Below are positions 9,227 to 48,887 of a stretch of DNA of 64,000 nucleotides, piece by piece (the first letter of the stretch is position 1; the number at the start of each line of letters is the position of its first letter). Below the pieces are notes generated by a model. The model did not search any database. It saw only the letters and a program-made list of their open reading frames with translations, and was not told the DNA's origin. This DNA is from Ceratodon purpureus (lineage: Eukaryota; Streptophyta; Bryopsida; Pseudoditrichales; Ditrichaceae), in assembly GCA_014871385.1 (NCBI GenBank), contig CM026427.1, forward strand, positions 432,907 through 496,906, written 5' to 3'. The position numbers and the translations under genes were made by a program.

Positions 9227-9994
9227 TTAACCCCCACATGCCATGCCTGAGCCTATGACCACGGAAATAGACTTTGACTTTGGATGCTCTATTTTGCTAC
9301 TATAAATAATGTAAAATATTAATTTTTTATTTCTCTTAGCTTAATACACATATTATCTACAAGCAACAATTTTATCAAAATTAATGGTTTCATTATGTAA
9401 TTAATATAAATTTTCTAATCAAAACAAACAAAGAAAATTCATTTCAAATATTGGTTATACCAAAAATTTACGAAATATCTACCATAGATGTATATGACAA
9501 CCAAAAACCTTATATTAGTTACCGTGCTCAAAAATTATGTTTTAATTCAAAACTATGATGAAAAAACCTAAAACCGTGGAAAACCAAGAAGTAGCCACGG
9601 TTATACCCCTTCATCTTATACCAGCTATAAATCACTCAATTTTATATATGTTTCAAAATATTAAATTGGATTGGAAAAAATATTTGTCAAGCTACATTTC
9701 ATTAGTTTACCTCAAATGCAAAAAAGATCATCTCAATTGTCAAAATTGTATTCCAGCTGTCTGAATTCAGGAATTTTTGAACATACACATGGTATTGATG
9801 TTTTGGACTTTAAGGAGGCACCAAAATTCATGGAATTACTATTTTGAGCATCCATTAATGAAATTAGATAGATTTCTCACAACTTTACAAAATGAAAATA
9901 AAATGGATGAAAATTTGTCATTTGGATGACAGATATGGAAACTTGAAAGAATGAAATCAACCAGTTTTTGGTCGTTTAGGCGTTTAGGAGTTAA
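9227..9994 (-). mobile_element. TTAA-bounded non-autonomous element, copy 1 (piggyBac-like candidate)
   Basis: This 768-bp AT-rich element is flanked by TTAA at 9227-9230 and 9991-9994. Its outer ends read CCCCCACATGCC and, from the other side, CTCCTAAACGCC. It is homologous along its whole length, in inverted orientation, to 36522-37283. The homology stops at TTAA on both sides in both copies, which defines the borders. It contains no credible ORF. TTAA duplication with C-rich tips is the hallmark of piggyBac-type transposition. Confidence 0.7.
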
Positions 9995-10651
9995 TCTGAA
10001 TGAATTACCACTTTCATTTGTGCACATGAGGAATATAACACCCCGTTATTGGTCCTGCATAGTTGTTGGCACCTCTACCTTATATGTTGTTGAGTGATAT
10101 TGTTGTTGAGTGATATTGGTGGAGTTGTTTTACAGTGGCACTTTCAATTATGCCACACGATGATGCCATTGCTGACTAGAGAAAGCAAATGCAAGCACAA
10201 GAAGAAATAGCACCTGTACTTGAAGACAATTGGATCATTGATTTTACAATTTTGTTTCATGCTTTCACACTAATGGCAACGAAGTTGTCTACACGACATG
10301 CTTCATAGATGAAAATAAATTTTAAATGCTCTTGAATAGTAACAACAAGTCTTTATCATGGAAGTTTGCTCCATCTACATTGGAAGAAATTTGGAGTTTC
10401 TCCACGAGCATTCTTGTTGCATTTCAATTGTGCACTACACTTCAAACTTGAAATGATGTGACATACAAAAAATGTTTTGCCATTCTTTCATAGCTTTTAT
10501 TTGTTAAATGCTCGTACTTCAAAGTAGGTCTAAAAGTATGTGTACATTAGATATCCGATTTAATTCTCTAAAGCAGCGCTATCCGGAATGAAGGAACCCA
10601 CCAATAGCATACAAGTATTGAAAATTCTTGATAATATATAAGAAATCAATT
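9995..10651. other. AT-rich intergenic DNA between two TTAA elements
   Basis: No gene, and no repeat with definable ends, was recognised. A short duplicated phrase (TTGTTGAGTGATATTG) occurs near 10088-10120. Confidence 0.4.
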
Positions 10652-11584
10652 TTAACCCCATAAAGGACAATCATCCACATTTGGGCTTTTTTAGAATTCG
10701 GGCATGTACCTATGACTTCAATTTAAGTCGTGATTTTTTGAAACTTTTTGTGAATGAAGGCCGTAACAACGACTTTGAGGGAATCTAATTTTATTTTCAA
10801 TTAGACATTTCAAAAATTAGTTATGGTACCCAAAGAGAAATGTGTTATTTGGTGGGTTCTTCGGTCACCCATGCAAAATACATATGTTCCCTTTGAGATT
10901 ATCTCTATAAATACTTAATCTTGCCATCTTTGAGATTTCCCAAAAAAAAAAAAAATTCAGTTCAAAATGTTCACTCTACAATATATCAAAGTTTTCTCAC
11001 CGTTTGAGGCAGTGTACTAAAAAAACTTCTTCTTTCCTCCATAAAAGTTAGAAAAATATCATTTGGGTTTCTTTCTTTTTTTCAGTGAATACGTGGACAT
11101 TAATCTTTACTTTGACCGTTTGGATTGGGACTTTATTAAATAATGGAATTTCCAGGAAAGAAATAAGATTCAGCATTCTTGTGTATTCAACTTAATGAAA
11201 AAATGTTTTCAACATGCTACACTTGTCTTTTGTGTGTAATTTTATTTTTCAAAATTAGCTTACTTAGTCTTCTTTAACACGCAGAAAAATTGCTAAAATC
11301 GATACTACAAAAAACCAAAAGACAAAAAAAGCTAGAGTGTGTTGACCTAGTTAAAAACTGTGTCAAAAAAGTTTGTTTTTCAAAATTCAACTGCTATAAT
11401 CTTCTAATCTTTACGGTCGATTATGATGAAATTTTTTAAGCTATCTACTACAATAATATTTTTGAAGATCTTATGGTTAGAACTGGAAAATAATAATTTT
11501 GAAGTCATTCATGCTTTTTACATTGGAAATGGCAGTTTTGAAGCGTTTTTTGGTGAAACATAGTCAAGGAACCTTAGGGGTTAA
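10652..11584. mobile_element. TTAA-bounded element, copy 2 (933 bp)
   Basis: The left border reads TTAACCCCATAAAGGAC and the right border GGAACCTTAGGGGTTAA, so both ends carry TTAA with C-rich inward tips. The interior is AT-rich without a coding ORF. Its right part (GTTTTGAAGCGTTTTTTGGTG) resembles the right parts of the copies at 18285 and 37664. Family membership rests on the ends plus these patches. Confidence 0.55.
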
Positions 11585-12451
11585 GAAACAGTTACAAGTG
11601 GAAGTAGTAACAAATATAATTAGATATGAAGAAGTCTACAGAGTAAGATAAGCTATGAAGTTTTTTTTACTTTTGGAATTAATACAAATTTCAATTTTGA
11701 CAAGTCAACAAGCAAGTGAATCATGCAAAATTTGTATTCTCCATAAAAATAAACTATTCATTTACAAAATAATCAAACTATTGACCCCTAAACTTTTTTG
11801 AGTTTACATTATGATTGTAGCTCATCCCGACATGCTATTTTAACATAAAAAATATTCTATTTTTTTTGCCGCATTTGTTTTGTTGGTAACTTTTCAATGC
11901 ATAATTTTTTAAAGCATTTGAAGTTACAACACAAAAGTTATGAATTTTAGAAAGACTTGCCCAAAATTTGGGTAGCTTATAACTAATATCAGTCTTCCAT
12001 TACCTGCCTATGCTTCTCAGCTGATAACTAATCACGGTCTTCCATTACCTTCCATTACCTGCCTATGCTTCTCAGCTGATAACTAATCACAGTCTTCCAT
12101 TACTTGCCTATGCTACTCGTCATTTAGAAAGGCCATAGTGGAACAAGACTAAATTAAAAAGGGTAGGCATATGAGTCCAAAAATTTCTCATCCATACGCA
12201 TTGATGATAATTTTTATTTTAATAGATAACTTTCATTTGACAAATGGTTTCCATCCAAAAGGGCTATTTCATCTCATGCAAAGTTTTGATTTGGCCTAAA
12301 ATTACCATTCGGATGGACCGTTTTCATCTATTGTACAATTTCAACCACCAAAATATTTATATCTAGCCTTTAGTTTTCATTTGATGCATACATATATATA
12401 TATATATTTTTTTTTTCAGTTTTTGTGATATGGTAGCATGTCCATCCATAT
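11585..12451. other. AT-rich repeat debris left of the copia element
   Basis: No gene. Patches such as GCATTTGAAGTTACAACACAAAAG and the motifs following it are also found near 18430-18700, so this is part of a dispersed repeat. It includes a three-copy tandem repeat (listed separately) and a short TA run near 12392. Confidence 0.4.
11978..12119 (+). repeat. Three-copy tandem repeat, about 45-60 bp units
   Basis: The unit beginning ATAACTAATCACAGTCTTCC and ending CTATGCTTCTCAGC occurs three times with a few substitutions. The middle unit carries an extra TTCCATTACC. It appears to be a local duplication inside AT-rich repeat DNA. Confidence 0.75.
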
Positions 12452-12709
12452 TGTTAAGAAACTGCAAAGTAACCTTTCGTATAAGCAGAATGAAAACGAT
12501 TGTGATTGCAAGAAAGAACACAACAATAACAAGAAGCAGAAGCTTCGTACAAATATCGTCCGAGAAAGAATGGGAAAGAAGAGCCGAAGGTCTTCTTTCT
12601 ATACTCCCTTGCTGCTGTTCCACCAGGTGTCTAGACGGTGGACAGCTGTCATTGTGGAGTTTAACTTTACTAATTTTGAATAGTCACATATAATAGTAAT
12701 ATTTCAACA
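12452..12709 (-). repeat. 3' LTR of the copia element
   Basis: Direct-repeat partner of 17211-17468. On the minus strand it starts TGTTGAAATATTACTATT and ends CTTAACA. It lies downstream of the RNase H remnant and is therefore the 3' LTR. Confidence 0.9.
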
Positions 12710-13019
12710 CTCTGAATTTATGATTTCAGTCTGCATACCACCTTCTCTCTTTAGCCCAGAAATCAGCATACCACCTTCGCTCTTTAGCCGGGAGATCAGT
12801 TTATAAAGTCTGTATATAGAGCGGAGATATCCCATTTTCATTTGAAATCCTAATCCTGTGACCCCTCTTCCCTTCTCTATGCTCTCAATCAGCTCTAAGG
12901 TCTCTGACTGAGAGTCAAGCAACATTGACCTAATTCCCGAGTAAGGCCGTATTCCCTCGTTAAAAACCTCTGAGCAATGAGGGAAAAAGAGTGGAATAGG
13001 ACCTATGCTCGTTTCTAAA

Positions 13020-14315
13020 CTATGATATAATTTCTGATAACATACGCATGCCTGCAGCATAAACTAATTTTCTATGTTGGTGAGGTGGAAGAACCTTTGT
13101 GAGTAAGTCTGCAAGATTGTCTGCCGATGCGACTTTGGTTGCTTCGACTTGCTTGGATTCGATCAACTCCTGAGTATATCCAAACAAATGAGGGCTGATA
13201 TGCTTTGTTCTGTCTGCCTTTATGTATCCTGAAGCAACTTGCATCATCTCTCGTAGGTTCATAAGGATCACCCAATATTTTGCTCTTTCCTACCATCGGG
13301 GAAGTAAGGGGATTAGCCTGATCCATGTTGAACATCTTAAGCAGTTTTCGTGTGTATGTTTGTTGATGAACAAAAATATGTCTATTTGAGAATCGGTGGA
13401 TTTGCAATCCAAGGCAGTAAGTCGTAGGACCTAGGACTTTCATTTCGAAGTTTGTAGTCAGCTGTGTCTCAACTTGAGCGCACAGATCAGGGGTTCCTAG
13501 CAGGTTAATGTCGTCAACATGTACTGCAAGTATGATGAATTCTTGTGATTTTGTTAACACAAACACACATGGAAGTGCTAGATTAAGTATACTCTCAAAT
13601 GGGAGTACCAGGCTCTTCCAGATTGCTTTAATCCGTATAGAGCTTTTCTAATTAGTAATCCCGTGTGTTTTCCAGTTTTGGAAATTGGGGTTTCAGGATA
13701 GAAATCAGGTGGAGGCTTGAGATACAGTTCCACATCTAAATCTCTATATAAATAAGCAGTAACTACATCCATAAGACGTAGTTTGAGTCCCAGTTGGACG
13801 GCCATGGATATAATAAATCTAAAAGAGATACTATCCATAATTGGAGAGTAAGTTTCAGTGAAGTCAATTCCAGGTTTTTGATTCTGGCCTTGTGCTACTA
13901 ATCTCACTTTATATCTTATTACTTGTCCTCTTTCATTTCTCTTTTTAGTGAAGATTAATTTATAACCAATAGGTTTGTATTCTAAGTTATTTGTGAATTC
14001 TCCAAACACTTTTCTCTCTTTTGGTGAATTATATTCCCGTTCTAGAGGTGATTTCCATTGAGGCCAATCAATACTATTTTTGGCTTGTTCTAGAGATTTT
14101 GGGTCTAGTACTTCTATGTTTTCAGTTTTCTCAGTCTGCATGGCTATTAGTTTCGACTTTTTAGGAATAGGAGAATTTCCTGAACCAGGAACCGGACTTC
14201 TGATAATCCTTTGAGAGGAACTGAATCCATCTGGTAACTTGGTTGCTAATTCATTGAGATTTAGTAATTTGCGAACCTCAGAATCTGTCAAAGCTGTTCT
14301 CGGATCTGGGTTCAT
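13020..14315 (-). pseudogene. Copia reverse transcriptase / RNase H remnant
   Basis: Two open segments in different frames, 14315-13578 and 13566-13072, followed by 13271-13020. The first has the copia RT signatures YKVRLVAQG, FTETYSP and KALYGLKQSGRAWY. The second begins with the catalytic block AVHVDDINLLG. RNase H is represented only by its end, ADNLADLLTKVLP. Frameshifts separate the pieces and part of RNase H is missing, so this is a dead gene. Confidence 0.9.
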
Positions 14316-14399
14316 CGTTAGTGTCTCTTGGTCTCAAAATGTTACTGATTGTGGGTGATTGGTGGTTTCTAGGAATCGATCCTCAAGAAACCTGCAGTT

Positions 14400-15528
14400 C
14401 TAAAAATGAGCTTTCAGGACATCATCACGACCTGGGAGTTTGTATCTGATAATACTTGGTGAATCGAAGCCTAAGTATATAGCTTTAATTCGATGGGCTG
14501 AAATGGTTTTAATTTTTGGTTCTGGAGCAGGTATCCATACCTCGCATCCAAATACTCGGAGGTGGGATATATTGGGAGCTGAACCTATCACGAATTCCAT
14601 GGAAGTTCTATCATTTAATAATGTGGGTCTGTAGCGGAGCAGTGTCGCTGCATGGAGCATCACATGACTCCAATAATGTGCACGTAATTTTCCACGCAGT
14701 AGCATAGGTCGAACAATTAACTGAATCTTTTTGATATAAGCTTCGGCTTGTCCATTTTGAGCGTGCTCATATGGAGCAGAATATGTTAAGCTAATTCCCG
14801 TGGCTACACAATAATCTTCAAAGGTAGCTGATTTAAATTCTAAAGCATTGTCCATGCGAAGGTACTTGACTGGATAATTTGGAAAATGGTTTCTGAACCT
14901 GATGAGCATTGCTAATGTTTTCGGAAACACCATGTTTCTGGTGGTTAAAAGGGAGACTTCGGCGTGTTGCCGAGAGGCACCACAAGCACGAAGAAATATT
15001 TAAACAAATGGGAGGGTGGAGTTATCGGACCACACCAATCTCCATGTAGTCAAGCAGGGGTGGAGGCATCTCTGTGGGTAGCTTCCACTTCGATGCCTGG
15101 CGCACCAGCTTGCCTGCTATGCATGCTTCGCACTGTGCTACTCTTTCTGCCTCCCTGGTACTCAGACCATGGTTGGTAGTTATCGGAATTTGCCGTCTCA
15201 TCATGGTGGTTCCAGGATGCCCGAGGCGATGATGCCATATATTGGCAGTGCAAATCGTACTTGAGAAAGATTCAGAGATGTTCTCTGATCTTGCAGTTTC
15301 CCTATGTGGAGAAACTGTACGCAATTCGAATAAGCCTGAAGAACTGGCATGGATTGTAGCAATCACCAGTTGTCCCTTCCAAAGCTGGAGTGCTTCTTGA
15401 CTATCCTTGACGCAGGTTTGTGCATGGATACCATTTGCTCTGAGGTCTCTGTAGCTGATCAGGCTGCGAGGTGCCTCTGGAGCATACATTGCCTTTTTGC
15501 AATGGATTCGAGATCCTCCAGGCAGCAT
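14400..15528 (-). pseudogene. Copia integrase remnant
   Basis: Segment 15528-15022 carries the pre-integrase zinc domain (WHHRLGHPG with a later CEACIAGK). Segment 14933-14400 carries the DDE core, with RMDNALEF, the A/P-rich YSAPYEHAQNGQAEA patch and WSHVMLHAA. The two are out of frame and a stop lies between them, so integrase is inactive. Confidence 0.88.
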
Positions 15529-15591
15529 TATATCTGCTTGTCCTATGACAAACTGAAACTTTCTTTTACCCGTTACTGTTAATATTTCGCA

Positions 15592-16751
15592 CTATTCCCA
15601 TGGTTCATTTTGTGTTTTAAAATTAAACATATAATCTTTCGTTAATATGGTGTGAGTAGAGCCACTGTCAAGCACTATCGTATCTCCATGCTGGTGAGTG
15701 TAAACCATGTAGTTCTCAATATCTGGTTCATCCAAGTCAAAGGAGGGAGCATCCATTGTGTGAACTTCCCGACCTTGACTCTTGCCTCTATAGTTTTGGA
15801 GTTCAGCGTATATAGCAACCATATGAGCTGAGGCATGACACTCACAAACATAGTGACCGGCCCTGCCACATTTGTGACATGCACCGTCTTTTGAATCAGA
15901 TTGATTTTTATTTTTCTTATCCTTTTGATTATTGTTCTCATACCTAGGTTTGGTATTCGGTCTGTTGGAGTCCCACCTTGCAGTCCATTTCGACTTTGGT
16001 TTTCTCTCGGGGATCTCTGTGGAATGTACCTCCTTGCTGCCTGCCGAATTGAATTTCTTCGAAGATGGCCCTATGGTTGATTCCAGTACCTTTGTGGTAT
16101 GCACCTCTCGTGCAGGTCGTGACTCGTGCTTCTGCATTTTTGAGCATTAGTACCTGTTGCCTTTCTGCCAAAAGAAGGTATGACATTAATTCACCATGTG
16201 TTTTAAATTTCATGTTACGATACTGTTGAGCCAATATGGCATGAGCCAGGGAGGAATGTCGATAAAGTTTTATCAATGAGTTCTTTATCTTTGACTGGAT
16301 ATCCACACATTTTAAGTTGCGATGCAATGCGATGAAGCTCAGCCTTAAATGAAATGAGGTTAGGAAAATCTAGAACCCAAATATGAGTCCAATCACTGCG
16401 AGCCTATGGAAGAAAGCTCATTTCTTCATGGTTGAATCTTGCTTCCAGCGCCTTCCAGAGCTTGACTGGATCGTCCTCCTGGATGTACTGTTGTCGTAGT
16501 GTGGGATCGATGTGACGACGGAGGAATATGACTGTGTAGCATTTGTCCGTGTCTGGTACCTCTTTTTCTGGTTTGGGTTGAATCGTGTCTACCTTGTCTT
16601 CACATCGCAGGTGAGTTCGCATGTCGATGCTCCACGACATGTAGTTTGAGCCGTCTTGCTCAAGGGACTTGAACATAAGTGGTTGCAATCGTTTGTCATG
16701 ATTTCCCTTATCTGTAGACATCACAAGCGGTGTAGGAGCAAGATGCACCAT
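15592..16751 (-). pseudogene. Copia gag and protease remnant
   Basis: The gag N-terminus (16751-16404) starts at the ATG at 16751 and has the typical SWSIDMRTHL and LWKALEARF stretches. After a frameshift, segment 16137-15592 contains a CCHC zinc knuckle (CHKCGRAGHYVCEC) and the aspartic protease motif LDSGSTHTI. An intermediate segment near 16327-15944 is in another frame. The polyprotein is broken. Confidence 0.88.
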
Positions 16752-16932
16752 TTCGATGACCCTCCCACCGGTGATAATAATGCAATGAAAAAATAGTTCT
16801 TTATTAATTCAAAGTTACCGTAAAAGCTTTCAAACCCTCAGTTCTCAAAAGCTTAAGGTGTGCTTTATCAAAACTCTTAGTTCACGAAAATTCAAGATTG
16901 GCATTAATGTTTATTGTAACTCTCAGTTCTTG

Positions 16933-17206
16933 AAAGCTCAATATAACTCTCAGCATAAGATAATTCTCAGCTCAAGATAACTCTCAGCATAAGATAATTC
17001 TCAGCTCAAGATAACTCTCAGCTCAAGATAACTCTGTTCTCTCTGTGTCTATCAATGATATTGAGCTCTCTGTGTCTGTAATCGATATTGAGCTCTCCGT
17101 GCTTGTAATCGATATTGAGCTCTCTGTGTCTGTAATCAATATTGAGCTCTCTCTGTCTGTAATTAATATTGTGCTCTCTGTGTCTGTAATTAATGAGCGT
17201 GCTGAT
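16933..17206 (-). repeat. Two tandem-repeat tracts in the copia 5' leader
   Basis: About 16933-17034 is made of 17-bp units (AACTCTCAGCTCAAGAT). About 17040-17206 is made of six 27-bp units of the type GAGCTCTCTGTGTCTGTAAT plus 7 bases. The 27-bp tract is open on the minus strand as nonapeptides like ITDTESSIS. It lies between the 5' LTR and gag, so leader expansion is likelier than protein coding. Confidence 0.8.
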
Positions 17207-17210
17207 AACG

Positions 17211-17468
17211 TGCTAAGAAACTGCAAATTAACCTTTCGAATAAGCAGAATGAAAATGATTGTGATCGCAAGAAAGAATACAACAATAACAAGAAGCAGAA
17301 GCTTCACACAAATATCGTCTGAGAAAGAATGGGAAAGAAGAGCCGAAGGTCTTCTTTCTATACTCCCTTGCAGCTGTTCCACCAGGTGTGCAGACGGTGG
17401 ACAGTTGTCATTGTAGAGGTTAACTTTACTAATTTTGAATAGTCACATATAATAGTAATATTTCAACA
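17211..17468 (-). repeat. 5' LTR of the copia element
   Basis: Direct repeat of 12452-12709. On the minus strand it ends in CTTAGCA and is followed at once by CGTTATCAGCACG, a primer-binding-site-like sequence resembling the 3' end complement of initiator tRNA-Met used by many plant copia elements. Confidence 0.9.
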
Positions 17469-18284
17469 CACATGACTCACTTTTAGAAAGCCGCCTCTTT
17501 AAAACTAGAAAAAATTATATCCTTTGTACCTCAAAAACTTGCATAAATTTGATCTTTACTTCAATTTTCTTAAAAACATTTATGGTTATTTTTCTTGTGA
17601 TATTGAATATATCAACCATTTGGATTTCAAATTGGACATGTTTAACTTATCCTTTGAGGTGTACTAAATTTGGATAATAGAAAGGAATTTCAAAACACCC
17701 TCAATGACCAAAACAAGAATTTTTCACCCTTTCCAAGCATATATGGTTCTCAAATTTGGAGAGCGTTAATCTAACTTCCATATCTACAAGAATCAATGTC
17801 CTTTCATCTTTCAAATGTCTTTTCAAAATATATGTTTTCGGCATAGAAATTTAGGTACATTAATGCAGTATTGTCAAAAAAAATTGAACAGTGACTAAAA
17901 ACCTCATTATCTCCAAATTTGTATAGTTGATTGTGCTACAATTTGGTGTAACTTTTTTATTTTTATTTTAATAAAGGATAGGTTTAAGATAATATGGTTA
18001 TTAACTCTTTAAAAAATTAATTTTAGAAAATAATGAGTTGCTACTAGTAGGGGTCTATTTATAGCAAGTTTTGGCTCCAAGACACCAACGAATTTGAAGG
18101 GTGAATGGCTTTTTCATAAATAGTGCAAATATCTTAAGTTTTTTAACATAGTATCTTAACATTAGTTATCAAAGTACCACACTAAATGTCACAATAAAAA
18201 TCTTGGTACTTTTGAGGTCAAAGATAAAATGCAATAGTGCAAAAATAACGTAATATATTATAGAAAATGTTTTGTTCAACACAT
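17469..18284. other. AT-rich intergenic DNA
   Basis: No gene seen. The phrase GCAAGTTTTGGCTCCAAGACACCAA near 18064 is echoed at 19383-19406 inside the next element, so an older related repeat is probably present, but I cannot fix its ends. Confidence 0.4.
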
Positions 18285-19423
18285 TTAATCCCTAAAGGCA
18301 CTTCAGACAATATTGTGGTCGTGGCACTTTTGAGGTAGGCTATTCTAAGGTTACAAAATTTAATTATATTTTGAATTTATTACCTTATTTAGCTCTCAAT
18401 AGTAGGTTTCTAACGGCACAAATTTCAAAGCATTTGGAGTTACATTGCAAAAGTAATGAATTTTAGATTAATCTGCTCTATATCTGGGCAGCCAAAATTC
18501 AATCAAAATCTTCCATTTCCTACCCAAGTTGTCTGTCATTCACAAGACAGAATTTCAAAAGGTGGACACTTGTAAAATGATGGGCCCAATATTTTTTCAT
18601 CCGTACACATTCATGACAATTTTCTTCCAATATAAAATTTTCATCTAACTAACCGTTTCTATCTAAAGAGGTTGTTAACCTTTTTTGATCCAAATGACAA
18701 TTGTTATCCAAAGAACATTTTTTATCCAAATCCATTTTTCATCCAAACTTAATAAATTAATCCAGTATCTATGACGTGGCACGGGGTCTATCCTCAGGAC
18801 CTCTTTTTTACCAAAATTGCCATTTGAAATAAAATAGAAATTTACAATTTACATGTCAAAAAACTCTAGAAATTTGAAATCTACTCCAATCATGTAGAAA
18901 CTTTTTGTAGTTCGTTATCTCATTAACTTCAACATATCTATAGTTTGGATTTCCAATTGGACATTTTAAGATTACCCTTTAAGTAGTTTTAATTTTGAAG
19001 AATGTAAAGCATTTTTAGCACACCCTCTTTCACAAAATCAAAGATCTTTTCTCCTTTCCAAGCCAGTATGAGGCTCAAACTTTGTGAGTTGAACTCCTAA
19101 CTTCCATCTCTAAAGGAATTGATGACCGACTATGAATCAAATGTGTTCCCAAAGTATAGTCTAAGAGCATCAAAACTTAGGTAATACTCTAAGGGCAGTG
19201 TTAAAAAAAACATTTACAGTGACTTCAAACTTTACAATCTAGCAATGTGTATGGTATACTGTCCTCAAAATTGGCATACACCTTTTTTAATAAGGTAATT
19301 ACAAGATCCAATGGGTCAATATTCAATTTCATATCTAAATATAAAAAACAATAGGCTTCTATAAGTTGAGGTATATTTTTGGCAGTTTTGGCTCCAAAAA
19401 CACCAAGGGCCTATAGGGGTTAA
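18285..19423. mobile_element. TTAA-bounded element, copy 3 (1139 bp)
   Basis: The left end is TTAATCCCTAAAGGCAC and the right end GGGCCTATAGGGGTTAA. A near-palindromic subterminal segment (GACAATATTGTGGTC) matches the position of a similar one in the copy at 21583. No ORF of note. The borders are inferred from terminal motif and TTAA, not from an empty site. Confidence 0.55.
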
Positions 19424-21582: not shown

Positions 21583-22478
21583 TTAACCCCTAAATGCACT
21601 AGCGACCAAAATGTGGTCGCAGCCTATTTTGGGCAGGCTGCTACGCCTTTAAATATAATTATTAAGTTTTGAGCTTTTGTATGTAGATTCCTTAAGTCAT
21701 TACGTACATGTCAAGCTTTGTTTCATATGATTTTGATAGGTAATGCAAAAGTTATGAAGGATTAAAGGTTCAAAATCTCAACGCGGGCAGCATATAAAAA
21801 ACTCAAATCTTTTTCTAAAAAATAAATTAAAATATCATCATTTTCTACTGATTTGTATGCACATAGGAAGCTTTGAGCCATGCCAATCCAATAAGTGAGG
21901 TAAGAGATATGAGAAGTCATATTATGCGGGCAGTTCGGTCAACTCTTTATCAAAAATAACTTCAACTATTGATTTTGAACTCGATTTTAGCAATTTTCCA
22001 AAATTAAAAATTGGAAAAGTTTTTGGTTACTTGTTACACCAATTTCACCGTTGGAACTGACAATACCTATTTTCATGTGGACAAAATTAGTAGTTTAGTT
22101 TTTCCCTCTATTCTACATCTTATTTTTATTATTTATGGTTTGAAGATGAAAATCAAGGTTTAATGTTTTTAAATAGAATATGCAATTGCCCATTCTAAAA
22201 TTCTAAAGCATATTTTCTGAAATTTCGTTGAAGACAAGATTTTAGTTTTTTGAAGGATTGGAAATAACTTGTCTTGGAAGTTTAAACATCATGATCTTGT
22301 GATTGGTTTGGTTTCTGACTCTAAGAGTTTGAGAAATAGCTTTTTGATGAGTTATTTATAAGATCCTACGGTTGAAATTGCAAAAGAATGTTATGAAATC
22401 AATAAAATCAGCTTGCTTTACAAAGAGGTATCAAAAGATAGTTTGAGCCTGAAATTTTCAAGAGCATTTAGGGGTTAA
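21583..22478. mobile_element. TTAA-bounded element, copy 4 with perfect 15-bp ends
   Basis: The left end TTAACCCCTAAATGC (21583-21597) is exactly inverted at 22464-22478. The 896-bp interior is AT-rich and non-coding. A subterminal near-palindrome, GACCAAAATGTGGTC, lies at about 21604-21618. This copy best defines the terminal consensus of the family. Confidence 0.72.
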
Positions 22479-34838: not shown

Positions 34839-34841
<3 letters not shown>

Positions 34842-36492: not shown

Positions 36493-36521
36493 ATAGAAGA
36501 AGAGGAACAAGACTGTTGCAG

Positions 36522-37283
36522 TTAACCCCTAAACGCCTAAACGACCAAAAACTGGTTGATCTCATTTTTCCAAGTTCCATAACTCTCATCCAAATGTCAA
36601 TTTTTCATCCATTTATATTTTTTTTCATATTGTAAAGTTGTGAGAGATCTATCTAATCTCATTAATGAATTCTCAAAATAATAACTTCATGAATTTTGGC
36701 GCCTCCTTAAAGTCCAAAACATCAATACCGTGTATGTATTCAAAAATTCCTGAATATAAAAAACTGAAACACAGTTTTGACTATCGGGATGATCTTTTTT
36801 GCAGTTGAGGTAAACTAATAAAATGTAGTTTGACAAATCTATTTTCCAGTCGAATTTAAATTTTAAAAAGTACCTAAAATTGAGTGAATTATAGCTGGTA
36901 TAAGATGTAGGGATATAACCGTGGCTATTACTTGAATTTCCTCGGTTTTAGGATTTTTCATCATAGTTTTGAATTATAACATAATTTTTGAGCATGGTAA
37001 CTAGTATAAGGTTTGTGGTTGTCATATACATCTATAGTAAATATTTTGTAATTTTTTAGTATAATCTATATTTGATATGAATTTTCTTTGTTTGTTTTTA
37101 TTAAAAAATATATTGATTACATAATGAAACCTCAATTTTGATAAAAGTGTTGTTTGTAGATAATATGTGTATCTAGCTAAGAAAATAAAAAATTCATATT
37201 TTACATTATTTATAGTAGAAAAATAGATCATCCAAAGTCAAAGTCTATTTTCGTGGTCATAGGCTTAGGCATTTGGGTGTTAA
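36522..37283 (+). mobile_element. TTAA-bounded element, copy 5, inverted mate of copy 1
   Basis: The left end is TTAACCCCTAAACGCCTAAA and the right end GGCATTTGGGTGTTAA. The whole 762 bp aligns in reverse complement to 9227-9994 with substitutions and small indels, and similarity ends at TTAA on both sides. It has no coding ORF. Subterminal ACCAAAAACTGGT is an imperfect palindrome, as in copies 3 and 4. Confidence 0.75.
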
Positions 37284-37663: not shown

Positions 37664-38244
37664 TTAATTCCTAAATGTCCTTACCTATGTCTAGTTTGGG
37701 CAATTTTGCAAAAATGCTTCATAAAACACAATTAATATAAATATTTTGAATTTGATGTATAAATAAAAGTTATGTATTTTGAATTTTAGATTCTATCTAT
37801 ATAGTTAGATCTATAACTGTACTCGCCAATCTCGTTTTATAAATTTTGAAACATAAAATAAAAAATCATTTTGTAATTCAATCACAAATAAGATATTGAC
37901 AATTAGTGGATGAAAATTTGTTGTAATGGATTATAATGTAGTACTTTAGGTGTAGTAATTTTTGGAGATTTTTTGGATGCTTCACTTTAATAAAAAAAAT
38001 TCTTCAAAAGCACTTTTAGACCCAAATCTTCAAGATTTTTGGTGAAACATTAGAACACAAAATGAACCATAATTTTTTCAAAAGCTATTTCTTTTCAATC
38101 GAATCACACATACATACATGAAGCTAACTTTCCATAAAAAATATAATGAAAAATCACACTACAAAAAGTGCATGACGGATGAGAAAATATGGATGAACAC
38201 TTTATATTAAGCCAAAAACGCCTGCTTGGGCACCGAGAGGTTAA
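37664..38244. mobile_element. TTAA-bounded element, copy 6 (581 bp, diverged)
   Basis: The left end is TTAATTCCTAAATGTCC and the right end GGGCACCGAGAGGTTAA. The right part, CAAGATTTTTGGTGAAACAT, resembles the right part of copy 2. The ends are more diverged than in the other copies, so membership is moderately supported. Confidence 0.45.
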
Positions 38245-39440: not shown

Positions 39441-39600
39441 CGTTCCATGAGATATCGATGAGATGGGAGCGCAGTAATTCCACACTGCGGCCATGGAGGC
39501 TGAGTGACGGACTGGCTCACAGCTGGCATTGCTCATAGATTCATCGATGAGCCTCTAGGAGGCGCGGGTTTGAAACTTGCTGCTGGACTGCAAAAGCAAG
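39441..39600 (+). repeat. GC-rich tRNA-like island, SINE candidate
   Basis: Within AT-rich DNA, a GC-rich stretch has an A-box-like ACTGGCTCACAGCTGG (about 39511-39526) and a B-box-like GCGGGTTTGAAACTTGC (about 39564-39580), with tRNA-like spacing for a long-variable-arm tRNA. Stems are not complete, so a real tRNA gene is unlikely. A downstream A-rich tail is not obvious. Confidence 0.33.
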
Positions 39601-41454
39601 CAATTTATAAAATTATAATGTAAATTTCTGTCAATTGTTCTCGTCAAAACATGTTTTACAATTACTTCAGATTTTTTGTGATTGATTGGATTTGTGTAAC
39701 ATTGCAGTGTTTCAAATACGAGGGGAATGTTTTTTAGAATTATGTCATGTGGGATTGACATGTCTTTGGTTCCTTGTGGACTAAGATTTTTGAATTAACA
39801 GATTTTGATTTGGTTGAAAATCTCAAAGAAGACTATGTTCATAGTTACTGTAACATATTGTAACAGATTAGCAGGTTCATCCAACTCTAAACAAATATGT
39901 ATTTTTTTATAAAAATGTATATAATGCATGGAAATCTATACATTTTATACAATTTTGGAGTCTTCCATGTTGATCTAAAAGCCCACTACAGTATCGAGTA
40001 TCGACTGTATCGTGTTTGGATTTGTTTCAAAATGATGAAAAAGATTATATTATTTTATCAACTATGCATAGTTTAAGTGACAGGATTTAATTTAGAGTGA
40101 ATATTAATGTTCAAAAAATATGTAGGTAAAAGTAAATACAAATCTACAAAAATCAAAAAATCATGTATCATCTACAAATCAATGTTCTTTTGTTTGACGT
40201 GGACTTCCACATTAAGATCCATATGTCATTCTATCAAATCTTGCTATGGAACAAGCTTTTCAACTAGGGTCATAACTTTAACATTATTTTGTAGTTTGAT
40301 CCGTGATCTTTACATTTGGTCCTTAATTGTTACATTTATTTCTAATTATGAGAATTATGAGGGTTTGAGGTAGGAGTATCAGCATAAACAAGTAGAGAAT
40401 AAAGTGCACCAAGCCAACATCAAATAGGGGCAAAATCATGTAGTATGGTCAATTGATGCAAAGCAATATATTTGTATTTAAAGAATTAGAAGTAGAACAT
40501 AACATGATAGAAATTATACAACACAAATTACAAATACAAAATTGTTTACAAAATTCATGAAGAGAAATCTGTAGTCTCAAAAGGGGCCTTTGAGTTTGGC
40601 ACGTGCTAAATTTTTTTATTCAAACCGAGCACATTTGATGGTGGCACCAATGGTGCCATCTGATTGACAATAGTGTTGTTCTATGGGTCCAGCGACGGGT
40701 CTAGCCAATCGACGTTGCTAGCACTACCAATATAGCGAGCGCTGCCACCACTGTAGCTTCTGACATTGTCAACGGGCAACAACATGCACCAATGGGCTTT
40801 TATGGAGAGGGGTATTTGGACGCCCAGTTTACCTAACACGGGTTGTCTGCAGAGCTCCTTTAGGACTCCATTTTTCTCCCAATGGATCAATGAAGTTTTG
40901 ATCAAAACTTATTCTTTGAACATTTGCCACTTGTCCAAGCAAAAAGACATAGTGTATTTAGAAGATAATGGCAATTTGAGTCTAATGTCTAGATCTTTTA
41001 GAACGAGGTTGAAAATTTTAAAGTTCTTCTAGTTAAGATGAAATTTTTGGAGTGTAGTTGGTGAATTTCTTGCTCTAATGATATAGTGGTCAAGTTGTTC
41101 ATAGGAACTGGAAGCTTTCTTTTATAATGTTATTTTTCAAGAAGTAGCATTCAGGGATGAAGGCAATTTTTTTCCACCATCAAACGCAAGAAAATCATTT
41201 GTTACAAAATGTAAAATTAGGGGTTATCTTTCTAGTATCGATTCATTGAAGGACTACATACTTCATTATGCATAGAGAAATCTTTACAATGAAATTAGTT
41301 AAGAAAACTTATTAAATAAGGTTCTCAAGAAACATCCATGTTTAGATCCAAATTATATCGGAGAAGTAGACAGGATTGTCGAGTTGAAGGTTTTAGAAAG
41401 AATTGGACTTGTCAAACAAGATTGTTTCAATCACAATTTTAGAGAAGAGATGGA
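39601..41454. other. AT-rich DNA; possible upstream part of a helicase relic
   Basis: Several short ORFs (for example + strand 40766-41032) lack domains. The stretch from about 41340 may belong to the decayed helicase that follows, but I cannot read it securely. Confidence 0.35.
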
Positions 41455-41940
41455 GTTAGTTGTATTGATAGATGAACAACAATAGGTTTTTGATAGGATG
41501 AGTACTTCAGTGAAGAGTATGAATTTTCTCAAAGATACAACAAAAAGTGGAAAGAGTTTCTACATTTGGTACTTTACAAACTATTTGCAAGGCTTGAGAA
41601 AAAAAGTAGTTCTTGAGAAAAAACAACAACAGCTCATATGCATTATAGAATTTTGGTTCATGGCTACTTATATGGTCTCTGTAAACTAATTGTTACTTTG
41701 CAAAGGTTAGAAGAAGCTCATGTGTACATCATTGACGAAATGGATATGATGACAAGTGGTTTTTTTATTGCCACTTATTCGAGAGTCAAATAGAGCTCAA
41801 AGGATTTTAATAATCCATTTGAAAGAAAGTTATTGTTGTTGGTGAGAGATATGGCTCAATTGCCTGCAATATGTGAATTGTATTTTTTAATGTCATCACC
41901 GTGCAGAGGAGTTTGCCACAATATGTGAATTGTGTTTCTT
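41455..41940 (+). pseudogene. Decayed Pif1-like helicase (Helitron-type candidate)
   Basis: Reading across frames gives VLIDEQQ, a stop, then VFDRM and a Walker-A-like FLKDTTKSGKSF (about 41519-41562). Next come a Walker-B-like VYIIDEMDMM (about 41724-41753) and a motif-III-like LVRDMAQLPAI (about 41838-41870). The order and spacing match the Pif1 superfamily-1B helicases found in Helitron Rep-helicase proteins. Stops and frameshifts make it non-functional. No Helitron 5'-TC or 3'-CTRR hairpin end was identified. Confidence 0.55.
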
Positions 41941-42238
41941 GGAGAATTCAGTAGTAAAAATATGAGAATCAACGACTCATTAAATGACTTGCTTATGAAT
42001 CAGTTTATACAAGGTGGAATATAAATGACATAGACTTCTCTTATCAATACGGACTAGTCCTTCTTTTGTGCGCGTCATTTTGGACCTTTTTTACTACCCA
42101 AGTAAAACGAATTTCCTAGATTTACAGTCAGTCTCAGCTGCAACTGCAAAATATGGTAGAAACTTCAGATTGTCGACCGCTCATTATCGTTGGAGCATTA
42201 TTACATCATCTACCAGAATGTCTACCCATGTACCGAAT
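41941..42238. other. Spacer between the helicase relic and the CACTA element
   Basis: No gene seen. May include further helicase debris. Confidence 0.35.
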
Positions 42239-43534
42239 CACTAGTAGAAACAGGTGACAACTACATTGAAACATCACACCGAAAAATCCATTTGGTGTTA
42301 ATTTAATCTCAGCGACACACCCTATTGGTCAGTGGATTCTTTTGGTGTAATGTGCATTGCCATTTCCATTCTCCTTTGAAATTTCGGCTTTATGTCTTGT
42401 GTCTAGCCCCGTCCAATGCGGACGCATTCTAATTTTGCAGGGTTATGAAAAGAATTGCTCACATTACACTGAAAAGTCCATTTGTAGGCCCTAGGTAACG
42501 AATCGTCGACCATAGGTGATGTAGTTGTCTTTATATGCAGGTTTATATTCTTGCAGGTTAGTCGGTTCAAAAGACGGTTAACAGATCTGCCTACCGTCAC
42601 CCTCACCTTCGTAGCCTCTGTAGCGTGTCTGCAGTTGAATGTCCCAGGTAGGTGGGTGTTGGTTGATTACATGCATTTCGTTGTTGACAGGTGTAGGAGC
42701 TGCCTTGCATTGATGTGTTGTTGTTTTGCAGCATGTTGGCGTGTTGATGCGTTGTTGTATTGTATCACTGTTTTGTAAAGGTCATTGCTTTGTGAAGGTT
42801 TGTGAAGGAATTTGGTGGTGTTGTGACAAGGAAGTGCTGGAAGTACATATGAAGTCATAGCAACCAAGCTATTACAATAAGAATGCACAGAAATACAAAT
42901 CATCCACTATGTGTTACTCAATATAATTTTACCTTCCCATAAATTTACTACAACAATTGGTCACCACACCACTTAAATGTAGGGTGTGAGTCACATCGGT
43001 GGAGACACCATTTATTAAGCAAGTGGACCTATGCAAATAGTAAATGCTCCTTTTCAGACACCCTGAAATAGGCTTGAGTGGTGTCCAACTACACCAAACA
43101 ATAATCTCACTAATGTAGAGATGGGTATTCCCGTCAGGGTTTTAATTCGTGGCCTATCAGTGTACCAATATCTGAGCAGACAGCACCTGACTACCACACT
43201 CAACAGATTGTATAACAATCTATCATGTTCTCTATGCAAGAATCTTTGTATTGCATATACCTACTCACCGAAATACTGGTCTATAATGTTGCACTTCAAA
43301 TATTCATGGAAGTTTGATAAATTTCAAAAAAAATATTAAAAAATCAGATTTGTGATTTTCGACCTAACTTCTATTTGTATAAATTTTATCCCCATAGTTT
43401 TCTCAATCCCAAATATTCTAAATGGCTTAAACTGACGGGAATATCCATCTCTACCTTACACCATTTGGAAAAATTAAAATTAGGCCTATTTTTGGTGTCC
43501 ATCTTGGTGTAGTTGAGGGGCTTTTCTACTAGTG
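42239..43534. mobile_element. Non-autonomous CACTA (En/Spm-type) element, 1296 bp
   Basis: It starts CACTAGTAGAAA and ends TTTCTACTAGTG, with similarity continuing inwards to the C/ACAACTACA block, giving TIRs of about 28 bp with mismatches. A 3-bp AAT duplication flanks it (42236-42238 and 43535-43537), as expected for CACTA elements. Subterminal motifs such as GAAAAATCCATTTGGTGT and variants recur near the left end and at 43440. No transposase ORF, so it is non-autonomous. Confidence 0.85.
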
Positions 43535-44056
43535 AATGTACTAAATGTTTGTAAATATACCAAATGTACCAAATGTTTGTAAATGCTCTGTAATCTTCAA
43601 ATTACAATCATTGAGGTCATACGTGGTACACATCGTCTGGTTTAGATTATTCAAACAATGCTGCAGATCCAATGAATCTCATTGATTTAATCAAAAAAAT
43701 TCAAGAATCCAAGAAGAGACCTCAGACTGTTCAAATCATCTATTTTTGTAGACATAAATGAATCGTTATCCGGAAATTCCAAGCTCTTGACCATCTTCTC
43801 GCATTCTTCCCAATGGAACCTCGATGGATCCTGAGGACTTATCACTTATGCGACAATCCATGTATTATCACAAATAAGTTCTTAAACATCGTGATAGCAA
43901 TCAAAGACCACTAAGCATTGCCGAATCTAGATGATTGAAGAGTCCAATACATATGCATTATGATGTTACCGGTGCTTTTGCTATCACGGTGTTTGTAAAC
44001 GCAATGTCTCCATGTGCATGTGTGTGTAGTGATCAGGAAAAGTAAGGGTTGTTGTG
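43535..44056. other. Intergenic between two DNA transposons
   Basis: No gene seen. A short tandem phrase (CAAATGTTTGTAAAT) lies just after the CACTA target duplication. Confidence 0.4.
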
Positions 44057-44933
44057 TACCGTAGCTTACTAGCAGCTTCGGCAGAAATTAATCCTAAAAA
44101 TTAACGCCTAAATTTTTTGGAAATTATGGGCAATTCTTGCCTAATATTGTGAAATTTAAAGTTCATCAATGCCTAAAATTGAGAAAAATCTGCAGTTTGG
44201 AAGATTATACCTCACTTTGAAGCTTAGATTGATTGAGAAGGGGGAGAAGGTGCTCCTCTTGTAATCAAGCCCACTTACACTACTCCACAAAGAATATGGG
44301 TTAAGAAGTGGCAAGACTCTAGGTGGGGTTTTTGAAATGTGTTGTACACAGATTTTTGGAGTGTGATTGAGCATAGAAGATGAAGTTATATGAAAGTGTG
44401 ATAAACCAAGAAAAGTTGAGTAACCAAGCCTTCTTCCATCTCCAACAAGTTTTATGTCAAAAACAGTTTTTATGCAAAAGATATGGGCAAAACAGCACGT
44501 AAAGGTCCATGTATCAAAATGTGTTCCAAACAGTTTTTTTAAAGCTCATTTGTGCATAGCAAATCAACTTTTTCGGAAATATTTTTGTCTAAGAAAAGCT
44601 TTAAAATCATGCTATCTTTCACCTCCAACAAATTTTGTGTCATTTGGAGACTTCTTGCAAAAGCTATGCTTGTTATTAAAATGAAGACTAACTAGTTGTT
44701 TCAACACAAAGTTCACATATCCCACATGCATTGTTGAATACAACTCCACTCGTTGTGTATAAGTAACTGAGCATTCTCTACCTCGGAAGTTGGATGAGTG
44801 CCTAATTCATATTTAATTAAAATTTAAAAGTGCCTAATTTTTTGGATATCATTTTTTGAAGTGACTAACCATTTTTTGCACTTTAATTAATTATTAGGCA
44901 AACAAGTGCCAAAGCTGCTAGTAAGCTACGGTA
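44057..44933. mobile_element. TIR element with GCCTAA subterminal repeats, 877 bp
   Basis: TACCGTAGCTTACTAGCAGC begins the left end. The right end is its inverted copy, with one mismatch over about 27 bp. Inside both ends the motif (T)GCCTAA recurs at least six times, for example GCCTAAATTTTTTGG and GTGCCTAATTTTTTGG. Flanks share only TTGTT, so the target duplication and superfamily (hAT or Mutator-like) are undecided. No transposase ORF. Confidence 0.7.
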
Positions 44934-47900
44934 TTGTTCCATTGTAGTGAAAATTACGGGGGGTGATTACTCATATTTAGTCAAAACGCATTTTTAATAT
45001 AGTTCAAACAAGTTGGGATTTGAGACATGTACTCATTATATTGTCACATTATAGGTGAATTAGGTGGCCTTTATAGATACATTTTTTCTTGATTTGGGGA
45101 AAGTGTAGAGATTCTTTTAGGTCTAATGGACATGACACACTTCAGAAATTCATTACAAATTCAAACTTTGTCTAAAAAATAAAATAAAATTTCCACTCCC
45201 TATTTTTGACATTTGTCTTTATGTGGAATTTTAGAAACAATTAAACAATGGCAACAAGGCACATCAATCATTCTGCCTATCATAGGTTGTTTTTATCTTG
45301 TGCAGATATGTGATTTTGGAATATCAGTATTAAAGTGTGGAGACATCTTCCCGTTCAGAAGCTAACATTGTAGAGACATATCAAATCATTATCATTTTGG
45401 GAGACCCTGATGCAATTTTCTTGTGCGAGGTTGTAAAACAATGTGATTGAAAATACCAAATCTATTCAAAGATACAGAGAAAGCGTTCATTTAACATTTA
45501 GCCTTGTCATGCATCATATATACCACTTGAGAAATTCAACTGAGTATATAGCTAATTAAGTTGCTTTTCATTACAACATATAACTTTCTAGTTCATAAAA
45601 GTAGTTGTTTATTTTAATAGTTGATGCAAATAAATCATAAAATTTGTACAAGTTTTGAAAGAATAACTAAGGTAAATGTTTAATAAAAGTGTAGAGTATA
45701 ATGTGATTTTGTTTGGAAAAGATGCGGATATTTGTCAAGCTTTTGATTACGATTTAAAGATGGGAGTTGAAGCACCTTCACAAGAATAAAATACAAGGTA
45801 ATCATCAATTGCAGTTCATATGATAGAAAGTTCAACATCAATTTCATTTTCAATATTGTGAATTCGATAATTATAGCTAAAAGAAACAAAAGTAGTGTAT
45901 TTACAACTTTGAGTCATCATCACACTGCTAGAATATCTATCTTCACAAAGTTATTAACAAAATTATTTACCTGCGACAAAATTGTTAAAATGCATACTAC
46001 TATAAATTGACAATTGAACAAATTATATTGGTAAGGCATCACAACATACATTGATGATGAAACCTGTGTTTATATTTCAAAATTGTCACAAAATTTCGGG
46101 ACCATAAAACCCCCAAAATGCAAAGCCGTAAGTTGTTGGCTTGATGCACTTCTTTTTCTACTTGTATATGCTAATACTCTTACCTTGAACCCTATACTTT
46201 AGTTTCAACTTTCTCCAAATTTTGTATTTGTAGGTGAACCTTGAGGTCCCACACGCCTTGTTGTCATACAAAGATGATTTCATTTACCATTATTCTAATT
46301 TATATTATCCATAAAGTACCGTATATTGAACATCTTTATAAAATAAAAATTTATTACATGATTTAACTTAAATTTAAAAATCTCCTATTTTGGATTTGAA
46401 TTTTTCTTTTGAATTACATTTGTTCTTGTATAATTTTTTCAAAAAGAATTTCACTTATAATCCTAACCATTAAAAGATTATTGTTTATTTGACCAAAATT
46501 GGAATATTGAACAAGTTCCTTTGATGTTGGTTTTGAATGCAATGTTTTAAAGATCTTTGTGAATGTACGGAATTATAAGAGCCTCGTAGGAATATAATTT
46601 TCAATTGATTGAACCTTTAGTAAAAATGTTGTAGTTCTTTGAATACTTTTTCTTCACAAAAGGTTGCTCTGTAAGTTTTACTACACCCTTTCACTACCTT
46701 TGGAATTCTTGATACAAGTAATTATATGGTCGCCTTTGAGATTGTAAAGAAGACATGGTCTAAAAAAGTAAAAAAAATATAAGAGAAAGAATTCAAAATT
46801 CTCTTACCTTTTTTGAATTGAAACGCATCAAAATAAATGTTTATTTTTTTATATTATTGAATTTCTAATTTTAGAATAGGCATGAACCTTTGATTTGACC
46901 ATATGATAATATTAAACTTCTATATGAAATTGACCTAAAATACAACCAAATGTATAGTAGCAATTTTATGAACCTATGTCCTTTTCACAAACGTTTTTGC
47001 AAAGCTTCACCACTTTGCAACCTCTAACATTAGGCGTATATGAAATTAACATCATGTATACAATAATAGCATAAAATTTAGAATTTGCATAGTGGAAAAT
47101 TTTGACATCTAGAGAAGTGAAGGTTTGTTCATTATATCTAGACATGATAAAAATAAACATCTTTATTAACTTCAAAGTGACTAATCTTCTAATTTGTGTA
47201 GTTAGATTTATTACAACGATAATCAAATATTCCCACGCTAAATCCCATAGCTGAAGATGCAAAGTAAGCATTTTTTTCCCATCATTATTTGATCTAGAAA
47301 TTTAGAAATAACTTATGATGAGAAATGGTCAAGAAATATTAGAAATTAAATTGTTTCCATGATATGTTTAGATCTTGCTATGTAAAATTGAATAAAAACT
47401 AAAAATAACTAAAAACTCAAAGTAAAATAAATTTTTATTGACAAAAGCTTGAATTGTATATGAATGAAAATAAAATCATATTAAACCTTGTGTATTTATG
47501 TATAAAAACATATATCTGATCCGATTTCATGAAAAAATATATGTGTTACCTTGTACTTGGGTTTTTGTGCGTATTTAATAGGTACAATTTCCATGGAATT
47601 GGCAGATACTTACATGGCATTACATAGGGTAGAGGGCATTGATTTTTCCAATACCACATACTCACTTAATGAACCTCACTATCAAAGCAATAAAATCATG
47701 AATGCATCACCTTCACACATCAATCCCATCCCATGCATGGCACCCATGTTGGTCCAATATTCCAATTAACATCTAACATATATATGCAAGGCACAGTACC
47801 TCTGAGGCTCTGATGAAGTCGAAATTCTCAATCCCAACTTCTCATCAGAATTATTTTAGACGTGATTAGAACTTGAGACAAGAAGACCATGGATAATAAC

Positions 47901-48130
47901 TTGAGAGATAAAAATGTAATAACTTATGAGTAAAAAAAGTGAAGTTTCCAAACCAATATGTTAATATTAGTTTTCAAGATATAATAAAATATGAGAAACA
48001 AAAGAAGACAAGACCAAATGAGTTGCAAGTAACTCCTCAATTCAAATGAAACTACGACAGCCAGGGCAACGTCACAGACTTGGAATAAATTAAGTTAGGT
48101 CATATCATGCATGCAACATTCATTCACAAC
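44934..48130. other. Long AT-rich interval with no supported gene
   Basis: Small ORFs occur on both strands (for example - 46966-47271 and + 47551-47769). None has a domain or codon usage like the real genes nearby. Probably old, decayed repeat DNA. Confidence 0.45.
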
Positions 48131-48503
48131 TTAACCCTTAAACGCCGGACCCATAACCATGGATTTAGTCTTCAACTTTAGAGCCAATTATTTCATTAAC
48201 TGTGTTATAACATTTCACTTTATATTTTTAGTAGTTGAGAAGTATATGAGTTTTGTGTGTCATAAATTTTCCATAATTAAAAAAAGAAATTATAATTATC
48301 ATGATTTTTAGAAGTGTTTGTAAAGAAAATTCATATCAATTATGAAATATGCTTAAAAATTTCAAATTTTGTACAATGTATGCAAATCATAATGGAGAAC
48401 ATCATGGTAGATGAAAATTGTCCGTTCAACTAAAACTAGTAAAAGTTGCCACCTTATGGTAATAGGTATCAATACCTATTACCATAATATTCAATATTTA
48501 CAA

Positions 48504-48560
<57 letters not shown>

Positions 48561-48887
48561 AAAACTAGCTAATTGCATAGGCTTTTTTTTGTTAGTTAAC
48601 GCAGCAAAGATTCTTTTAATGAACTAAATTTAGTTTTGGCAAAAATTCCCAAAAAATTATAAATACACTGTAAGGTGATCTGTTTTTATTACTGTTTCAA
48701 AGTTGAAGTCTCATGTAAAATTTAAAAGTAACCTGTACAAATAGTAATAAAATTGAAGAGATAGCTCAAGCCCACTAGAAACTAGAAACCATTCACAAAA
48801 GAATATGGGATGAAATTACGGCTGTTGCTGTGTTCAAATGAACAGGCACTGTCGTCCAAACGCCTCAAGCAGGCGTTTCTGGGCTAA
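48131..48887. mobile_element. TTAA/CTAA-bounded element, copy 7
   Basis: The left end is TTAACCCTTAAACGCCGG; the right end is AGGCGTTTCTGGGCTAA, where the outer TTAA has become CTAA. The terminal AAACGCC and its complement agree with copies 1 and 5, and the length (757 bp) is nearly the same. It contains a (TA)n tract at 48506-48558 that is absent from the others. Confidence 0.5.
48506..48558. repeat. (TA)n microsatellite
   Basis: An uninterrupted TA dinucleotide run of about 53 bases inside the TTAA element copy 7. Confidence 0.97.

What the first reader, a model, noticed from the sequence alone, without database searches (positions are those of the whole stretch)
9227..48887. A family of seven TTAA-bounded repeats with CCCCTAAANGCC ends: piggyBac-like MITEs in a plant?
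Candidates at 9227-9994, 10652-11584, 18285-19423, 21583-22478, 36522-37283, 37664-38244 and 48131-48887 end in TTAA (13 of 14 ends; the other is CTAA), followed by a C-rich tip close to CCCCTAAA(C/T)GCC. They are 0.6-1.1 kb, AT-rich, non-coding, and several carry a subterminal near-palindrome (GACCAAAATGTGGTC and variants). TTAA duplication with CCC-type tips is established for piggyBac transposons, which are uncommon in land plants. A perfect 15-bp inverted end pair in the 21583 copy and the shared borders of the 9227/36522 pair are the strongest evidence.
Basis: partly seen in the sequence, partly recalled or inferred. Interest (0 to 1): 0.75.

Follow-up and report, generated by a model that had tools for sequence, protein, structure and literature searches.

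The report
PiggyBac transposons thriving in a moss
The repeats are short, non-coding relatives of piggyBac, a cut-and-paste jumping gene studied mainly in animals, and this moss genome also holds full-length copies that carry the enzyme likely to move them.

Summary
The window lies in a 362-Mb assembly, inferred to be the moss Ceratodon purpureus. The seven candidates are TTAA-bounded, non-coding elements with CCCCTAAANGCC-type tips. They form about six families rather than one. An eighth, decayed copy is split by a Ty1/copia element.

The exact 16-mer TTAACCCCTAAANGCC occurs 802 times in the genome, its reversed control 0 times. In 14 of 14 aligned copies of one family, homology stops at TTAA on both sides. 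Two empty sites keep a single TTAA, one of them inside the window.

The genome encodes piggyBac transposases: 116 PF13843 matches scored of 998 candidates, 93 without a stop in the match. Two full-length elements carry the end pairs of two window families. Catalytic aspartates align with those of solved piggyBac.

So these are piggyBac MITEs in a land plant with a transposase source present. The superfamily is known; its scale in a moss is the notable part. My library searches showed no report of it.

The parts
9227..9994 (-). Family I piggyBac MITE (inverted relative to the 36522 copy)
   Evidence: Ends; 88% to 36522-37283 over 757 columns; aligned with 12 other copies, TTAA on both sides
36522..37283 (+). 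Family I piggyBac MITE, 762 bp
   Evidence: 40 matches scored of 765 candidates, 37 of 40 over the full query; same two ends as the full-length element in L043
10652..11584 (+). piggyBac MITE-like element of a large family
   Evidence: With 150-bp flanks, 32 of 45 non-self matches end within 1 bp of 11584; 2568 first-look candidates
18285..19423 (+). piggyBac MITE-like element, 1.1 kb
   Evidence: L014 aligns over 18285-19423 exactly, 76%; ends
11781..18105 (+). Eighth, decayed copy related to 18285-19423, interrupted by a Ty1/copia element; ends TTGA and TTCA
   Evidence: 67-75% in pieces to 18285-19423
12451..17471 (-). Ty1/copia element inside the eighth copy (approximate borders; LTRs 94% alike over 259 bp; flanks CATAT/CACAT)
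   Evidence: LTR pair, frames, borders read
21583..22478 (+). piggyBac MITE-like element, related to the full-length element in L040/L045
   Evidence: End pair shared with the element in L040/L045; L005 aligns over 21583-22478 exactly, 73%
37664..38244 (+). piggyBac MITE, about 580 bp
   Evidence: With 150-bp flanks, 30 of 39 non-self matches begin within 2 bp of 37664 and 25 of 39 end within 2 bp of 38244
48131..48887 (+). Old, low-copy piggyBac MITE-like element
   Evidence: Matches of 67-81% begin at the left border; right ends scatter between 48868 and 48889
44676..44679 (.). Single TTAA of an empty site; the paralogous locus L003 has a family I element here between two TTAA
   Evidence: Flanks 92.6% and 93.3% alike; junction read
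21603..21619 (+). Palindrome CGACCAAAATGTGGTCG at bp 17-33 of the end
   Evidence: 7 of 8 pairs
36542..36558 (+). Near-palindrome CGACCAAAAACTGGTTG at bp 17-33 of the end
   Evidence: 5 of 8 pairs; 6 of 8 in the full-length element L043

Best explanation
The repeats are non-autonomous piggyBac transposons (MITEs and slightly longer derivatives) of a moss. A piggyBac (DDE_Tnp_1_7) transposase made by full-length relatives elsewhere in the genome recognises the C-rich tip next to TTAA. Its C-terminal cysteine-rich domain most likely binds the palindrome at bp 17-33 of one end. It cuts the element out and inserts it at another TTAA, which ends up on either side. Shown here: insertion limited by TTAA, empty sites with one TTAA, matching end pairs in transposase-bearing elements, conserved catalytic residues. 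Inferred: that these enzymes moved these copies, the excision chemistry, and the contact of the cysteine-rich domain.
For: 802 exact tips against 0 in the control. TTAA before the tip in 92 of 100 listed sites when TTAA was not part of the pattern, the other 8 one substitution away. 14 of 14 aligned copies bounded by TTAA with no shared sequence outside. Single-TTAA empty sites. PF13843: 116 scored of 998 candidates, all 116 over the curated cut-off. Full-length elements with TTAACCCC at both ends: L021/L022, L043, L044, L040/L045, L033; L043 has the end pair of family I, L040/L045 that of the 21583 copy. PDB piggyBac 6x67 E 7.7e-27, piggyBat 9c0f E 3.3e-25, with D268, D346, D447 and D450 standing over D. 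Six invariant C-terminal cysteines in 8 of 8 moss proteins aligned. Palindrome at bp 17-33 of the end on the 5' side of the transposase gene, as in piggyBac.
Against: No movement was observed. The Pfam models found in 5 moss proteins did not include the zinc ribbon PF13842. The palindrome is poor in L033 (2 of 8 pairs) and at most window ends (10 of 14 have 4 pairs or fewer; no chance level was computed). For families of 10652, 18285, 37664 and 48131 no full-length partner with the same end pair was identified. Two matches of the 37664 family run past the border, and the right border of 48131 is loose.
Confidence: 0.97

Rival explanations
1. The elements belong to another TTAA-specific superfamily (Kolobok or Sola3), and the piggyBac transposases in the genome are a coincidence.
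For: These superfamilies also duplicate TTAA (recalled; TTAA for Kolobok also fits PMC6004289, seen in a search listing only). I did not search the genome for their transposases.
Against: Elements with the same end pairs enclose a DDE_Tnp_1_7 frame.
Confidence: 0.02
2. They are PIF/Harbinger (Tourist) or mariner (Stowaway) MITEs, common in plants, whose TTA or TA duplication happens to lie in a longer TTAA.
For: Both are the usual plant MITEs with TA-containing target sites (PMC10004981, passage).
Against: All four bases TTAA are kept at 14 of 14 copies on both sides and in 92 of 100 sites; the matched full-length elements carry piggyBac transposases. The count of PIF transposases (PF13359) was asked for and never answered.
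Confidence: 0.01
3. The tips are chance or interstitial telomere-like repeats (CCCTAAA) and not transposon ends.
For: The tip CCCCTAAA resembles the plant telomere repeat (recalled), and the copy in L051 lies beside such repeats.
Against: 802 against 0 for the reversed pattern; families with exact borders.
Confidence: 0.003

Closest known systems
piggyBac of Trichoplusia ni and piggyBat of Myotis (solved transposases)
   Same: TTAA target, C-rich tip, DDD transposase with aligned catalytic residues, C-terminal cysteines, palindrome at bp 17-33 of one end
   Different: Moss frames are often longer (about 660-1070 aa in the loci listed, against 594 and 578 aa) with long N-terminal parts; elements of 4.6-6.6 kb; about 31-41% identity is seen even among moss lineages
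piggyBac transposable element-derived protein 4-like transposases of fish, molluscs, ribbon worms and an anemone
   Same: Named relatives found by the protein searches
   Different: In a quick tree the 8 moss proteins fall with 26 unnamed proteins in a clade of 34 rows (SH-aLRT 100) that holds no named animal protein
piggyBac MITEs claimed in angiosperms and piggyBac counted in land plants
   Same: Named as present: PMC10004981 (passage), PMC4438587 (passage); fragments counted in a fern, PMC6890710 (passage)
   Different: Those passages give no moss; here full-length elements, matched ends and empty sites are shown

Membership tests
piggyBac superfamily | TTAA target site, single in the empty site | tested here: met
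piggyBac superfamily | Terminal repeats beginning CCC | tested here: met
   the same tip rule is described for animal piggyBac in PMC10813416 (passages)
piggyBac superfamily | DDE_Tnp_1_7 transposase in full-length members with the same ends | tested here: met
   exact end pairs found for two of the window's families
piggyBac superfamily | Catalytic aspartates D268, D346, D447 | tested here: met
   Alignment; invariant in 8 of 8 moss proteins; roles from PMC7351741 (passages)
piggyBac superfamily | C-terminal cysteine-rich domain | tested here: inconclusive
   Six invariant cysteines, but PF13842 not matched in 5 proteins
piggyBac superfamily | Palindromic internal repeat at bp 17-33 of one end | tested here: met
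   4 of 5 full-length elements with 5-6 of 8 pairs at the 5' end of the gene, L033 with 2; no chance level computed
piggyBac superfamily | Seamless excision | not testable with these tools
   Needs an assay or insertion polymorphism
MITE | Short, non-coding, high-copy, with defined ends | tested here: met
   the 0.9-1.1 kb members are long for the class
Kolobok / Sola3 | Transposase of that superfamily in full-length members | tested here: not met
   Followed full-length members carry DDE_Tnp_1_7; no genome search with Kolobok or Sola models was made
PIF/Harbinger (Tourist) | Three-base TTA/TAA duplication and DDE_Tnp_4 transposase | tested here: not met
   Four bases conserved; matched full-length elements carry DDE_Tnp_1_7; PF13359 search not answered

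The most novel reading that the evidence does not exclude
Mosses carry their own long-lived and recently active radiation of piggyBac transposons: several deep transposase lineages with long N-terminal extensions, each giving rise to MITE families, so that piggyBac is a chief source of small DNA elements in this genome and could supply a native plant piggyBac system.
Probability: 0.4. Interest if true: 0.68.

Novelty: new member of a known kind. Interest (0 to 1): 0.52.

Why it matters
piggyBac is a widely used genome-engineering transposon and is best known from animals. A moss genome with more than a hundred scored piggyBac transposase matches, 93 of 116 without a stop, and hundreds to thousands of candidate dependent elements offers a plant host in which its control, target choice and effect on the genome can be studied. 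It also suggests that plant repeat pipelines limited to the usual superfamilies may miss or misname such elements (my inference, not tested).

Tried and rejected
Chance and telomere-repeat origin, PIF/Harbinger or mariner borders, and another TTAA superfamily were considered and set aside for the reasons under rivals. Rfam (gathering threshold) and tRNA scans of the window gave nothing. Comparing the two ends of single elements was uninformative for most copies. L066/L067 (955-aa frames, 94% over 3.6 kb) were fetched to look for a recent jump, but no shared TTAACCC ends were found in 7 kb. L068/L069 share a TTAACCCC end and 99.2% over 3164 bp on two contigs, but the other end was not found. 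Counts of other transposase families (PF13359, PF05699, PF10551) were asked for and never answered, so I cannot say that piggyBac dominates. The Ceratodon genome paper (PMC8245031) and 10.1093/molbev/msp013 are not held. No paper was read whole: passages only (searches found none of the terms).
Full report
Where the window lies. An AP2/ERF frame at 51094-51954 has moss proteins as its closest named relatives (Ceratodon purpureus, Syntrichia, Physcomitrium). The assembly that holds the window has 362,488,568 bases in 151 contigs, and the window is C7:432907-496906. Its contig C3 is 25,160,467 bases long, exactly the contig length listed for the C. purpureus protein P0005. I infer that the genome is Ceratodon purpureus, a moss (lineage).

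The observation. The 14 ends are as reported. TTAA plus the tip is far above chance in the window (12 against 0-1) and in the genome (802 against 0). The family I end was also searched without fixing TTAA: a first base other than G, four free bases, then 25 bases of the end. It has 171 matches and 0 in the control. Of the 100 listed, 92 have TTAA before the tip and 8 have a variant one substitution away. So TTAA is a property of the sites and not of the search.

Families. Copies 9227 and 36522 belong to a family of about 762 bp. Forty matches were scored of 765 candidates, 37 of the 40 over the full query. In 12 fetched copies plus the two of the window, TTAA is kept in 14 of 14 on both sides, while the commonest base on the first position outside is shared by 4 (left) or 5 (right) of 14. 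Copies differ from the majority by 2.1-8.3% and from each other by 2.4-12.1%. Copy 37664 belongs to a family of about 580 bp. With 150-bp flanks, 30 of 39 non-self matches begin within 2 bp of 37664 and 25 of 39 end within 2 bp of 38244; two run 32 and 46 bp past the right border. Copy 10652 has the most first-look candidates (2568, of which the best 40 were scored); 32 of 45 non-self matches end within 1 bp of 11584. Copies 18285 and 21583 align end to end with L014 and L005. Copy 48131 is old and rare; its left border is met, and right ends scatter between 48868 and 48889. An eighth, decayed relative of 18285 lies at about 11781-18105 and was later split by a Ty1/copia element. The counts of candidates are first-look numbers, mostly not scored.

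Empty sites. In L013 one element sits inside another. Its flanks joined with one TTAA align without a gap at the joint to five related elements (L010 and L011, a duplicated pair, counted once): four have TTAA and one, L014, has TTTA. The window itself holds another empty site: 44646-44709 carries one TTAA where the paralogous locus L003, 92.6% and 93.3% alike on its two flanks, has a family I element between two TTAA.

The enzyme. A search of the genome with PF13843 (DDE_Tnp_1_7) found 998 candidates. The 116 scored are all over the curated cut-off, and 93 of them show no stop inside the match. The tool's 14 control genomes have none; their names were not shown, so I do not know whether any is a plant. 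Five element types were followed to both ends: L021/L022 (4637 bp in L021; homology between the two copies, 95%, ends at TTAA); L043 (6592 bp), L044 (5816 bp) and L040/L045 (5127 bp); and L033 (5447 bp; its relative L037 shows the same left end, but its right end lies outside what I fetched). All five begin TTAACCCC at both ends. L043 has the pair of different ends of family I, and L040/L045 has that of copy 21583. In L044 the frame is split into 586 and 384 aa by a stop. The L043 frame of 1020 aa matches PDB 6x67 (piggyBac) at E 7.7e-27 and 9c0f (piggyBat) at 3.3e-25; piggyBac residues D268, D346, D447 and D450 stand over D. These aspartates and six C-terminal cysteines are invariant in the eight moss proteins that I aligned. 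Pfam's zinc-ribbon model did not match in the five proteins scanned.

The palindrome. Counted from the first base inside TTAA it lies at bp 17-33 in copy 21583 (7 of 8 pairs) and, with 5 of 8 pairs, in 9227, 36522 and 18285; the other 10 window ends have 4 pairs or fewer there. In L043, L044 and L040/L045 (6 of 8) and L021 (5 of 8) it is at the end on the 5' side of the transposase gene; in L033 it is poor (2 of 8). In piggyBac the dimer of C-terminal domains binds bp 17-33 of one end, a palindromic 19-bp internal repeat (PMC7351741, passages). The same place on one end makes the same role likely; binding was not tested and no chance level was computed.

Relatives and history. Two protein searches, each limited to the roughly 8000 candidates sharing most words, return named relatives only from animals, plus many unnamed proteins from metagenomes and read archives. 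In a quick tree of 79 rows (8 moss proteins and 71 of the 98 hits, those of at least 420 aa without X), the eight moss transposases and 26 unnamed proteins form one clade (SH-aLRT 100, no bootstrap) with no named animal protein inside. The unnamed members may come from mosses in the samples; this is a guess. L068 and L069 are 99.2% alike over 3164 bp from a shared TTAACCCC end on two contigs, which suggests fairly recent movement, though the other end was not found.

What is known. PMC4438587 lists PiggyBac among superfamilies found in all groups it studied, land plants among them (passage). PMC10004981 lists PiggyBac among angiosperm MITE superfamilies (passage). A repeat table of the C-Fern paper counts PiggyBac fragments (passage). 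Searches pairing piggyBac with moss, Physcomitrella, Ceratodon, bryophyte, plant genomes and land plants showed no description of piggyBac elements in a moss in the listings I saw, which are capped; the one paper holding both piggyBac and Ceratodon purpureus speaks of 'expression piggybacking'. The library holds open-licence papers only, and Repbase could not be consulted, so earlier notice elsewhere is possible.

Verdict. A known superfamily in an unusual host, apparently on a large scale.

Noticed in passing
window 12451-17471: A degenerate Ty1/copia element (LTRs 94% alike over 259 bp) lies inside an older piggyBac MITE, so that MITE predates it.
   Followed up: partly
L019 and L020 (G000 C1:7053000-7073500): A direct repeat of about 3.88 kb carries one TTAACCCCTAAACGCC-type tip per unit and a 212-aa frame that looks like a J-domain (DnaJ) protein (by eye).
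   Followed up: no
L051 (G000 C4:22740676-22741677): A family I copy sits next to telomere-like CCCTAAA repeats about 44 kb from the contig end.
   Followed up: no
L066 and L067: A 955-aa piggyBac transposase frame in two loci, 94% alike over 3.6 kb, without TTAACCC ends in 7 kb; possibly a longer element or a gene that no longer moves.
   Followed up: partly
L009 (G000 C1:3986000-3991600): Two family I copies in opposite directions flank a segment that looks like a large inverted duplication (same frames on both strands).
   Followed up: no
window 54732-55877: A 381-aa frame that resembles a group II intron maturase / reverse transcriptase, as in plant nuclear maturase genes (by eye, not searched).
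   Followed up: no
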